Shown: positions 51,858 to 54,227 of the stretch, piece after piece
How positions within the stretch are numbered: position 1 is the first letter of the stretch
Layout of the letters: every line of letters begins with the position of its first letter
NCBI GenBank assembly: GCA_023014335.1
Contig: JAECYW010000001.1
Location: 4,030,001-4,094,000 of the forward strand
Direction: 5' to 3'
DNA length: 64,000 bases
Source of the DNA: Galerina marginata
Lineage: Eukaryota > Basidiomycota > Agaricomycetes > Agaricales > Galerinaceae
Notes under the pieces: model-generated
Told to the model about the DNA's origin: nothing
Databases searched by the model: none
What the model saw: only the letters and a program-made list of their open reading frames with translations
Made by a program: the position numbers and the translations under genes

Positions 51858-54227
51858 ATGATTCCCCTTCCTAGCTCATTTGGCGACATTGTCGCCGCTG
51901 CTGGCCTCGCCCTCTTCATTTACAAAGCTCTCAGTGACAGCGTCGGTGCCACCTACGAGTATCAATGCTTGGTCGACGAACTCTATTCTTTCCATCTTGC
52001 TCTGAAAACGGTCAATCAAGTTCTGGCGAACTCGGCGATTTCTCCGAGCGATGTTCATGCTATCAAAGAAGAAGCTGCGTCCTGTCGAAAATTACTGGAA
52101 AAGTTCTGGGATCGCATCAAATCGTATCAAAAGTCTCTCGGTGGAGGAGGGAGGGACTGGAAGGACTCTTGGCGCAAAATCGGCTGGGGCCTTTTCAAGA
52201 CCAACGAAGTTGCAGACTTTCGGCAGAAAATTTCTCAACGCAAACAAACAATTACGATATTTCTGAGCGGACTGGGAATGTAAGTTCGCAGTGATTATCT
52301 TCACAACAGATTATGATTCATTGTATTAGATCCCTAACTTCCAACTACGGCGAAGATATCCGGAGGACGCTAGTGGTGCTCACGACCACTACGAAGGAGA
52401 TACTCCATGTACACAAGCAGCTACCTCGACGGATGGAGTACGGCCTAGATAACGCCGTGATTCTGCAAGACGTATTTGGAAAATCGATTACAGTGACCTG
52501 GGAGTTTTGTTTCTCGCCTGACGTACGCTTCTTAGATGTACTTCCTTCTGTCACTGATGTTGAGGACAGGCACTACACGCTTTTCTAACCGGGTACTTCG
52601 CGAAAAAGATTGGGCAGGATTATGTCGAGCGGCGCGAATATAGCATTTCAGGCGCGGATGGCAAGTCGATGGTGAAGCAAGCTTCCTTACAAGACCGGTC
52701 CGTCATGGAATTTGATCCCGTTGGGTGGCGTTCGGTGGTGAAGAAAGGGACAGTGCTTACCATGAGCATGGAGGTGAGAAGGGTAAAACTGAGGTCAACT
52801 CATCAATCCGTAATTCAGAAAGAAACATGCCCGCGATGTTACCGGACTGAAATCGGTGTAATGCTAGATGGCGAATGGCTAGAGTGGTAAGCGTTTTTTA
52901 ACTATTCCATTTTCATCCCATTTCATGATTTTTGCATTGGAGTCGGCACTGTCAAAGACGTTTTACATGGGATGATACGACGCTAGAGATGTTGAAGGTA
53001 CCTGTGCCAGATCCGAGCATTGTAGATTTTCGGAACATCAAGGTGGTGCCAGTGGTAGAGGTAAAAGGCAAATGTGTGAATATGAATGGGCAGTAGTCTC
53101 ACCAGTTCTTTGAATTTCATGAATTTCCAGGATGTACGTCAGTTTGTTGGTTGATCAATGACCACTGCACTGACAATTCCATCTCGCTTTCTCATTTCCA
53201 GATTGTACGTGAGCCTGTTGATTGAGCACTGACCATCGCTCTGACCATTCCATCTCGCTTTCTCATTTCCAGATTGTACGTGAGCCTGTTGATTGAGCAC
53301 TGACCACCGCTCTGACCATTCCATCTTGCGTTCTTATTTCCAGCCTGTACGTGAGCCTATTGATTGAGCTCTAACCACCGCTCTGACCATTCCACCTTGC
53401 TTTCTCATGTTCAGGAAGTACACGAGCCTGTTGACTGAACTCTGACCACTGCTCTGACCATTCCATCCTGGTTTCTCATTTCCAGGGTGTACGTGAGCCT
53501 GTTGATCACTGACCGCCGCTCTGACCATTCCATCTTGTGTTCTCATTTGCAGCTTGTACGTGAGCCTGTTGATTGAGAACTGACTACCGCTCTGACCATT
53601 CCATCTCACTTTCTCATTTCCAGTATGTACGTGAGCCTGTTGATTTATCACTGACCACCGCTCTGACCATTCCATCTTGCTTTCTCATGTTCAGGAAGTA
53701 CATGAGCCTGTTGACTGAACACTGACCACTGCTCTGACCATTCCATCTTGCTTTCTCATTTCCAGGATGTACGTGAGCTTGTTGATTGATCACAGACCAC
53801 CGCTCTGACCATTCCATCTTGCTTTCTTATTTCCAGTGGGTACGTGAACTTGTTGATGCGCCACTGATTACCTCTCACACAATTTTATCTTACTTTTTCA
53901 TCTCCAGCAAGTAGGTGAACACCTTGATCTTCATAAATGTGCCATGCTCACCGACTCCTCATTCCTGGATACCTGCAGTGGGTATGTACAATTTACCATC
54001 AGTTTCACTACAATATTTTCACCTTTTACTCACTGTTTCCATCCACTTTGGGTACGTTTCCGAGCTGAATGTGTTTTCCATTTGCCAATGTTCTTTTTAT
54101 AACTTTGTTCAAGCTCAACTTGCATAGGACATAGCATTGAAAGAAGAAGCCAGTCGATGTAAGTATTCTGAAAAGTCATGCTGATTTCTCACTAACAAAA
54201 TTCGTAGTCAAAGAAATTCATTCATGA
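51858..54227 (+). CDS. STAND-type N-terminal / ubiquitin-like / zinc-motif protein with single-codon microexon tail
   Basis: Exons 51858-52279, 52330-52522, 52570-52773, 52819-52886 and 52943-53060 sum to exactly 335 codons. Residues 1-140 (SFGDIVAAAGLALFIYKALS, YEYQCLVDEL) match the fungal N-terminal domain found on STAND and related proteins. About 155-275 is a ubiquitin-like domain (ITVTWEFCFSPD, FLTGYFAKKIG, GWRSVVKKGTVLTMSM). A CxxC...CxxC zinc motif follows (Cys277, Cys280, Cys296, Cys299). From 53061 the gene enters a tandem array of introns separated by 3-nt exons (DIIPEGLYEDWQW), all in phase 0. It then has exons 54128-54158 and 54208-54227, ending at TGA. The first five exons are secure. 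The tail is predicted from splice signals, and exons after 54128 could be read otherwise. A role in immunity or self-recognition is inference. Confidence 0.75.
53061..54127 (+). repeat. Tandem intron array with thirteen 3-nt exons
   Basis: Units of 71 bp: an intron GTACGTGAGCCTGTTGATT...CTGACC...TTTCCAG plus three bases. The 3-nt exons lie at 53131, 53202, 53273, 53344, 53415, 53486, 53553, 53624, 53695, 53766, 53837, 53908 and 53979. Eleven of the twelve introns between neighbouring microexons are exactly 68 nt; the one at 53489-53552 is 64. The first intron (53061-53130) is 70 nt. Each intron has a GT donor, one or two CTGAC branch-like motifs and a pyrimidine-rich stretch to AG. Codons in order are GAT ATT ATT CCT GAA GGT CTT TAT GAA GAT TGG CAA TGG. 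Skipping any number keeps the frame. The block 53982-54051 looks like one more unit whose acceptor AG is lost. Confidence 0.85.

What the first reader, a model, noticed from the sequence alone, without database searches (positions are those of the whole stretch)
53061..54127. Tandem array of near-identical introns separated by exons of exactly one codon
Thirteen 3-nt exons sit between GT..AG introns. Eleven of the twelve introns between neighbouring microexons are 68 nt long, and most are nearly identical. The preceding five exons sum to exactly 335 codons, so the array begins in phase 0 and every microexon adds one residue (DIIPEGLYEDWQW). I know of no described gene whose tail is built from a minisatellite of intron plus single codon. 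Because each exon is 3 nt, any pattern of skipping keeps the frame, so one gene could make a family of tails by alternative splicing, or the whole array could leave as one intron.
Basis: partly seen in the sequence, partly recalled or inferred. Interest (0 to 1): 0.95.

Follow-up and report, generated by a model that had tools for sequence, protein, structure and literature searches.

The report
Gene tail built from one-codon exons
In a mushroom genome, seven related genes end in long rows of exons only one codon long, set between look-alike introns; the codons vary far more than the introns, which resembles a device for rapidly varying a protein tail and has a known counterpart in truffle immune-type genes.

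Summary
The array is real: thirteen 3-nt exons between GT..AG introns at 53131-53981, in frame, in a gene of a Galerina-like mushroom. Seven paralogous genes in this genome carry such an array at the same place: 13, 14, 15, 36, 55, 16 and 15 one-codon exons. None of the 164 triplets is a stop (11.3 expected from positional composition; 5.4 to 9.9 for 147 non-redundant ones under other nulls). All seven end in TGG, and a conserved coding tail (..EASRFEEILS, stop) follows. Codons differ more than introns in all seven arrays, 8-fold in the longest, 1.9- to 3.4-fold in the others. This supports splicing and translation, but no RNA was available. The protein has a HeLo-like N-terminal domain (PF17111), a ubiquitin-like domain (ULD_2) and CxxC pairs. 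Two corrections: 52774-52818 is probably coding, so four exons and 350 codons precede the array (same phase); and a precedent exists, Tuber melanosporum NACHT-ANK genes with dozens of alternatively spliced 3-bp mini-exons. This is a new variant, in another phylum and a gene without NACHT or ankyrin. Best reading: exchange among repeated introns plus selection on single codons shapes a C-terminal recognition tail.

The parts
51858..52279 (+). exon 1: HeLo-like N-terminal region (PF17111 match runs into exon 2)
   Evidence: ends aligned with GT donor in 5 paralogs
52330..52522 (+). exon 2: start of ubiquitin-like domain (ULD_2)
   Evidence: 45 nt (51 in L015) open in 6 of 6 genes and kept as protein in annotated relatives P0001-P0005, P0007
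53061..53130 (+). first array intron, unlike the repeat, donor GTAAAAGG (GTAAGAGG or GTAAAGGC in some paralogs)
53131..53981 (+). array of 13 one-codon exons and 12 introns (11 of 68 nt, 1 of 64 nt)
53131..53133 (+). microexon 1 GAT (D)
53202..53204 (+). microexon 2 ATT (I)
53273..53275 (+). microexon 3 ATT (I)
53344..53346 (+). microexon 4 CCT (P)
53415..53417 (+). microexon 5 GAA (E)
53486..53488 (+). microexon 6 GGT (G)
53553..53555 (+). microexon 7 CTT (L)
53624..53626 (+). microexon 8 TAT (Y)
53695..53697 (+). microexon 9 GAA (E)
53766..53768 (+). microexon 10 GAT (D)
53837..53839 (+). microexon 11 TGG (W)
53908..53910 (+). microexon 12 CAA (Q)
53979..53981 (+). microexon 13 TGG (W); the last codon is TGG in all 7 arrays
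53982..54127 (+). intron after the array (146 nt)
54128..54158 (+). first tail exon, DIALKEEASR and first base of F
   Evidence..EASRF-like in paralogs and in Flammula P0006
54208..54227 (+). last coding piece: F completed, KEIHS, stop TGA at 54225-54227

Best explanation
The array is a spliced, translated run of one-codon exons that forms a variable C-terminal tail of a HeLo-like/ubiquitin-like protein in a mushroom close to Galerina marginata. Each intron is a complete small intron (donor GTACGT, branch site CTGAC, acceptor TTTCCAG), so each can be removed on its own and adds one residue without changing the frame. Because neighbouring introns are copies of one another, unequal exchange within them adds, removes and reorders whole codons with no frame or junction cost, and selection on the tail peptide keeps or makes the codons different while the introns are homogenised. 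By analogy with the truffle NACHT-ANK genes and from the N-terminal domain, the tail is most likely a fast-evolving recognition or partner-binding segment of an immune or self/nonself type protein, possibly varied further by skipping of microexons. Shown here: array, frame, paralogs, absence of stops, codon/intron contrast, block duplications, conserved tail. Inferred: splicing in the cell, translation, recombination as the engine, the function. Not shown: alternative splicing.
For: Seven of 7 close paralogs (window included) carry an array at the same place; all listed hits of the window array (23) and of a repeat-unit query (101) fall in these seven loci, counts the tool calls lower bounds. 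164 triplets, 0 stops; 11.3 expected from positional composition. With 17 triplets of two duplicated blocks removed: 147, 0 stops, 9.9 expected, P about 3.5e-5; also without terminal TGGs: 140, 7.6 expected, P about 4e-4; 147 under uniform codons: 6.9 expected, P about 9e-4; 147 under intron base composition: 5.4 expected, P about 4e-3. TGG 22 observed, 2.3 expected, half of them in L012; 11 against 0.9 without terminals and duplicates. Last codon TGG in 7 of 7 arrays. Codon divergence exceeds intron divergence over all unit pairs in 7 of 7 arrays: 0.687 against 0.086 in L012, ratios 1.9-3.4 in the other six. The branch A is kept in 119 of 121 introns of 68 nt, a position not used to find them. 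Pre-array exons are open with GT..AG ends at the same places in five of the six other genes (the one odd boundary, in L015, vanishes with the 45-nt correction); the sixth was not modelled in full. The tail ..EASRFEEILS or a variant, then a stop, follows the array in 6 of 7 loci by script and in L009 by eye; Flammula P0006 ends DEASRFEEILP. Annotated tails of Galerina P0001 and P0002, Flammula P0003 and Gymnopilus P0010 look like read-through into array-intron sequence, so arrays probably exist there and were mis-annotated (inferred from protein letters). PF17111 matches above its cut-off and is listed as Helo_like_N among fungal NLR N-terminal domains (passage). Block duplication: 14 codons repeated within 17 introns at 0.7% divergence in L012.
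Against: No RNA or peptide evidence; 0 of 53 homologous proteins includes a spliced array. Junctions were found by searching for AG|NNN|GT, so the invariant GT and AG and the 3-nt length are partly by construction. The stop test treats triplets as independent; shared ancestry and exchange weaken it, and the mildest null gives only P about 4e-3. Outside L012 the codon/intron ratio is 1.9-3.4; in the window the number of distinct codons (8) is matched by the most variable intron triplet (8). The branch A is not unique: column 64 is kept equally (119 of 121) and columns 56 and 61 in 118. Ordinary introns at matching places of six of the genes are as alike or more alike (0.74-0.83) than array introns between loci (means 0.63-0.78), so special constraint on the array introns is not shown. 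The first donor, GTAAAAGG, is weak. Function rests on domains and analogy; the predicted structure is poor (mean pLDDT 59.7) and matched no solved structure at E <= 0.001.
Confidence: 0.7

Rival explanations
1. The array is a minisatellite inside one long intron (53061-54127 here, about 4 kb in L012) that is removed whole; the splice-like ends are relics or aids to splicing of a long repeat-filled intron.
For: Joining 53060 to 54128 also keeps the frame; no spliced array is seen in 53 homologous proteins.
Against: 0 stops in 164 triplets, TGG excess, terminal TGG in 7 of 7, codons more diverse than introns in 7 of 7 arrays. A non-coding repeat gives no reason why the three bases between AG and GT should vary most and avoid TAA, TAG and TGA. 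CAG, AAG and GAG do occur as triplets, so avoidance of a competing acceptor does not explain it.
Confidence: 0.14
2. Introner-like elements: one intron type inserted again and again between codons of a pre-existing exon, which would explain alike introns and unlike codons without diversifying selection.
For: Introns alike, codons unlike; introner-like elements are known in fungi (PMC4457414, search listing only).
Against: All 101 listed unit hits lie in the 7 paralogous arrays. Insertions would have to fall in phase 0 after every codon. Blocks of codons and introns are duplicated together. Array length differs among paralogs.
Confidence: 0.06
3. The codons are translated, but the array is only a linker: concerted evolution homogenises the introns, purifying selection holds each tail, and there is no diversifying selection, no alternative splicing and no role in recognition.
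For: The codon/intron contrast can arise from intron homogenisation alone; the young duplicate in L012 keeps 14 of 16 flanked codons at 0.7% intron divergence.
Against: The tails of the paralogs share little beyond the last W (by eye) although the four paralog proteins compared, tails included, are 71-84% identical to the window protein; tail length runs from 13 to 55 codons.
Confidence: 0.3

Closest known systems
Tuber melanosporum NACHT-ANK (nank) genes with 3-bp mini-exons (Iotti et al. 2012, itself not held; seen through passages in PMC3689799, PMC4986451, PMC9815663, PMC10197012)
   Same: Tens of codon-sized exons in an expanded fungal gene family tied to nonself recognition; reported to diversify the C-terminal recognition part.
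   Different: Truffle is an ascomycete and the genes are NACHT-ANK receptors. Here a basidiomycete gene with PF17111 and ULD_2 and no NACHT or ANK match in Pfam. Alternative splicing is reported there, not tested here. Whether truffle introns are near-copies I could not see.
[quoted passage not shown]
   Same: Near-identical repeats shuffled by exchange, with hypervariable codons under diversifying selection.
   Different: There the repeat is protein; here the repeat is intron and the variable codon is the only coding part.
3-bp microexon of Drosophila homothorax (PMC7392893, abstract and outline)
   Same: A functional exon of exactly one codon.
   Different: A single exon, alternatively spliced from a longer exon, not an array.
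Micro-exon genes of Schistosoma (recalled; search listing only)
   Same: Many small exons in multiples of 3 nt, proposed to vary proteins by splicing (recalled).
   Different: Exons of mixed size, secreted parasite proteins (recalled); no kinship tested.
Introner-like elements of fungi (PMC4457414, search listing)
   Same: Near-identical introns in many copies.
   Different: Those multiply among different genes (recalled in part); all hits found here lie in seven paralogous arrays.

Membership tests
Truffle-type NACHT-ANK mini-exon genes | tens of exons of 3 bp in tandem | tested here: met
   13 to 55 per gene in 7 of 7 arrays, sequence level only
Truffle-type NACHT-ANK mini-exon genes | NACHT and ankyrin domains | tested here: not met
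   Pfam at E <= 1 gives ULD_2, PigL_N and a weak SesA only for the window protein; no NACHT or ANK in 16 members scanned at E <= 0.1
Truffle-type NACHT-ANK mini-exon genes | alternative splicing of the mini-exons | not testable with these tools
   no transcript data
HeLo-like (PF17111, PigL_N in this Pfam copy, listed as Helo_like_N in PMC9815663) | Pfam match above curated cut-off | tested here: met
   30.1 bits, cut-off 27.2, residues 15-165; 14 of 16 members match at E <= 0.1
HeLo-like (PF17111, PigL_N in this Pfam copy, listed as Helo_like_N in PMC9815663) | four-helix bundle fold and cell-death activity | tested here: inconclusive
   model of P0002 has helices within 30-193 but low confidence, no PDB match at E <= 0.001; activity not testable
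ULD_2 ubiquitin-like domain proteins | Pfam PF22893 match | tested here: met
   48.4 bits, cut-off 24.5; 16 of 16 members at E <= 0.1
Highly conserved repeat proteins of fungal NLRs | coding repeats of at least 85% identity over 100 residues (PMC4986451, passage) | tested here: not met
   the repeated part is intronic; coding tails are 13 to 55 residues long
Introner-like elements | copies dispersed in unrelated genes | tested here: not met
   101 of 101 listed hits in the seven arrays; the tool calls its counts lower bounds
Schistosome micro-exon genes | homologous protein family with signal peptide (recalled) | not tested
   no comparison made

The most novel reading that the evidence does not exclude
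A codon-shuffling device: introns serve as the homologous scaffold for recombination, so that single codons become the unit of exon shuffling, and each gene of a HeLo-like/ubiquitin-like family in agaric mushrooms makes a hypervariable recognition tail that is diversified both in the germ line (exchange within introns) and in the cell (microexon skipping). It arose independently of the truffle NACHT-ANK mini-exons, in another phylum and another protein family.
Probability: 0.38. Interest if true: 0.92.

Novelty: new variant of a known kind. Interest (0 to 1): 0.8.

Why it matters
If the tails are made, these genes place up to 55 consecutive 3-nt exons before a spliceosome, a severe test of how short exons are recognised, and they show a second, apparently independent case of codon-sized mini-exon arrays in fungi, again in a family with an immune-type domain. 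Because the introns are copies of one another and every exon is one codon, the arrays let one measure how recombination and selection change a peptide codon by codon. They also warn that standard annotation breaks such genes: relatives in Galerina, Flammula and Gymnopilus appear to be annotated with tails that run into intron sequence.

Tried and rejected
Reverse-strand coding: the array's complement has ORFs up to 116 aa, but a search with that ORF gave no homolog at E <= 0.01 (4 candidates). RNA element: no Rfam match at gathering score in 51500-55000 and no unusual folding of three single introns (z 0.08, 1.10, 0.15). Dispersed introners. Arrays in divergent paralogs (L039, L041-L044): no chain of 3 or more in the 3.2-3.4 kb held around each, which may not reach the gene end in every case. 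Structure: poor model and no PDB match. A scan of viral contigs for a 21-nt intron start found nothing. The literature was searched; no paper on such arrays in basidiomycetes was seen in those listings, but most subscription papers are not held, and Iotti et al. 2012 was seen only through citing passages. First chains were superseded; for L015 one search had chosen three AAG acceptors and the version with YAG acceptors was kept; in L012 one AAG acceptor was allowed; a possible 12-nt first exon in L015 was not counted. The ratio of about 11 between codon and intron divergence comes from overlapping tracts picked for intron divergence of at most 8%, which favours a high ratio; the unselected ratios replaced it as the main figure, and confidence was lowered slightly for that (0.72 to 0.70; the novel case 0.40 to 0.38; the one-intron rival raised from 0.12 to 0.14).

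Full report
What is there. In the window 53131-53981 thirteen triplets lie between YAG and GTA, spaced by twelve introns, eleven of 68 nt and one of 64 nt. They read DIIPEGLYEDWQW. The same search gives chains of at most 4 elsewhere in the window and at most 5 in 100 mononucleotide shuffles.

Gene model. However, 52774-52818 is open in 6 of 6 genes checked, the window gene and five paralogs (51 nt in L015, 45 nt in the others), and is present as protein (VRRVKL...) in annotated relatives P0001-P0005 and P0007. I therefore take 52570-52886 as one exon: four exons, 350 codons, same phase. After the array come 54128-54158 and 54208-54227, giving DIALKEEASRFKEIHS and a stop. This tail is conserved: a script that tries splice combinations finds ..EASRFEEILS/P and a stop, or a variant, in 6 of 7 loci (FKEIHS in the window, FEIMR in L014..DACRFEEILS in L015; alternative ends were also listed for L010 and L012), and NIALKEETSRFEEIHS can be read by eye in L009. 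Flammula P0006 ends DEASRFEEILP.

Relatives in the same genome. The window is G000:C1:4030001-4094000 of a 69.3-Mb genome in 43 contigs. The pre-array protein finds six further genes that carry arrays: three on C1 (near 3,993, 4,004 and 4,026 kb; the array of the last ends about 0.4 kb left of the window), two on C43 and one on C23, plus more distant relatives at 26-32% identity. Five of the six keep all pre-array exons open with splice ends at the same places; the sixth (L012/L013) is more divergent and was not modelled in full. The arrays hold 13, 14, 15, 36, 55, 16 and 15 one-codon exons (window, L009, L010, L011, L012, L014, L015). Distant relatives at five places showed no chain of 3 or more in the 3.2-3.4 kb held around each. 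The tool calls its hit counts lower bounds, so more arrays may exist.

Selection on the codons. Of 164 triplets none is a stop; 11.3 are expected from positional composition. After dropping 17 triplets in two duplicated blocks: 147 triplets, 9.9 expected, chance of none 3.5e-5; dropping also the seven terminal TGGs, 140 triplets and 7.6 expected, 3.9e-4; for the 147, under uniform codons 6.9 expected, 8.6e-4, and under intron composition 5.4 expected, 4.2e-3. These figures treat triplets as independent, which they are not fully. TGG is 22 of 164 against 2.3 expected, 11 of the 22 in L012 alone, and every array ends in TGG. The residues are rich in D, P, W, E, L and R; M and C are absent.

Codons against introns. 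Over all pairs of units, codon divergence exceeds intron divergence in 7 of 7 arrays: 0.687 against 0.086 in the 55-codon array (ratio 8.0), and ratios of 3.0, 2.8, 3.4, 3.0, 2.2 and 1.9 in the window, L009, L010, L011, L014 and L015, where codon differences (0.62-0.77) are near saturation. In tracts picked for at least three matched introns of at most 8% divergence the ratio is 10.9 in L012 (465 codon sites, overlapping tracts) and 11.3 in L010 (57 sites), 5.7 in L011 (6 sites); the other four arrays gave no such tract. That selection favours high ratios. Recent block duplications are visible: 17 introns at 0.7% in L012 with 14 of 16 flanked codons identical, and five introns at 2.3% in L010 with one base in 12 changed. 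Young duplicates thus keep their codons, while older copies differ more in codons than in introns. Homogenisation of introns with selection holding the codons, or diversifying selection, both fit; both require that the codons matter. In the window array alone the contrast is modest: 8 distinct codons against up to 8 distinct triplets at the most variable intron place.

Splicing signals. Among 121 introns of 68 nt the branch A (column 40) is kept in 119 and position 5 is G in 115. Column 64, in the pyrimidine tract, is kept equally and columns 56 and 61 in 118; the median column is kept in 109, so the branch A is among the best kept but not alone. GT and AG are invariant, but by construction. 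Of 157 introns between neighbouring microexons 121 are 68 nt; four (122-130 nt) look like two units fused after loss of a splice site, which costs a codon but not the frame. Three single introns fold no better than shuffles. The first donor, GTAAAAGG, is weak. A 3-nt exon leaves little room for factors on both sides, so removal one after another as the transcript emerges is my inference.

Other species. Protein searches found 17 and then 53 proteins, the second with scoring limited to the 7,994 candidates sharing most words. The annotated tails of P0001, P0002, Flammula P0003 and Gymnopilus P0010 end in what look like translations of array-intron sequence, and P0009 (metagenome) weakly so: 5 of 53. 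None of the 53 shows a correctly spliced array. A search with the array's reverse-strand ORF found nothing.

Domains and likely role. Pfam gives ULD_2 and PF17111 above their cut-offs. PF17111 is called PigL_N in this Pfam copy and Helo_like_N in PMC9815663 (passage), where it stands among NLR N-terminal domains; PMC10197012 (passages) relates HeLo-like domains to the MLKL executioner. Two CxxC pairs follow ULD_2. The structure model is of low confidence. A HeLo-like protein with a fast-changing C-terminal tail fits a recognition or partner-choice role; this is inference. A gene with a CHAT domain and weak TPR matches lies 4 kb downstream at 58192-61671 on the minus strand.

Compared with what is known. 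Passages in PMC3689799, PMC4986451, PMC9815663 and PMC10197012 state that Tuber melanosporum NACHT-ANK genes have tens or dozens of alternatively spliced codon-sized (3-bp) exons (Iotti et al. 2012, not held). The kind is thus known. The present case differs in phylum, protein family and domain content (no NACHT, no ANK), and shows repeated introns, a codon/intron contrast measured over seven arrays, a fixed terminal W and a conserved tail beyond the array. [quoted passage not shown]

Verdict. Real, coding by sequence evidence, not yet shown in RNA. New variant of a known kind; interest 0.8.

Noticed in passing
window 58192-61671, minus strand: Weak TPR matches (below Pfam cut-off) followed by a CHAT domain (E 1.7e-33), an architecture met in fungal immune-type proteins (recalled), 4 kb from the array gene.
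   Followed up: partly
window 21340-28210, minus strand: Retrotransposon-like stretch of three long ORFs; two were scanned and show RNase H, integrase zinc-binding and weak reverse transcriptase matches, and a zinc knuckle.
   Followed up: partly
window 32196-33335, plus strand: ORF with a weak, sub-threshold DUF659 match, perhaps remains of an hAT-type transposase (family by recall).
   Followed up: no
L015 5079-5221: The first exon of this array may be 12 nt (TATTTACAAACT, four codons) before the first 3-nt exon; read by eye, not counted.
   Followed up: no
L009 5029-5158: A decayed unit whose acceptor AG is lost merges two introns into one of 130 nt without touching the frame.
   Followed up: partly
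array introns, all loci: The intron consensus holds two CTGAC motifs, two candidate branch sites; only the second (columns 37-41) was counted.
   Followed up: no
window 56513-56572: Perfect tandem duplication of a 30-bp unit, 100% match.
   Followed up: no
P0010 tail (Gymnopilus junonius): The read-through tail suggests an exon of 9 nt rather than 3 nt between array-like introns; inferred from protein letters only.
   Followed up: no
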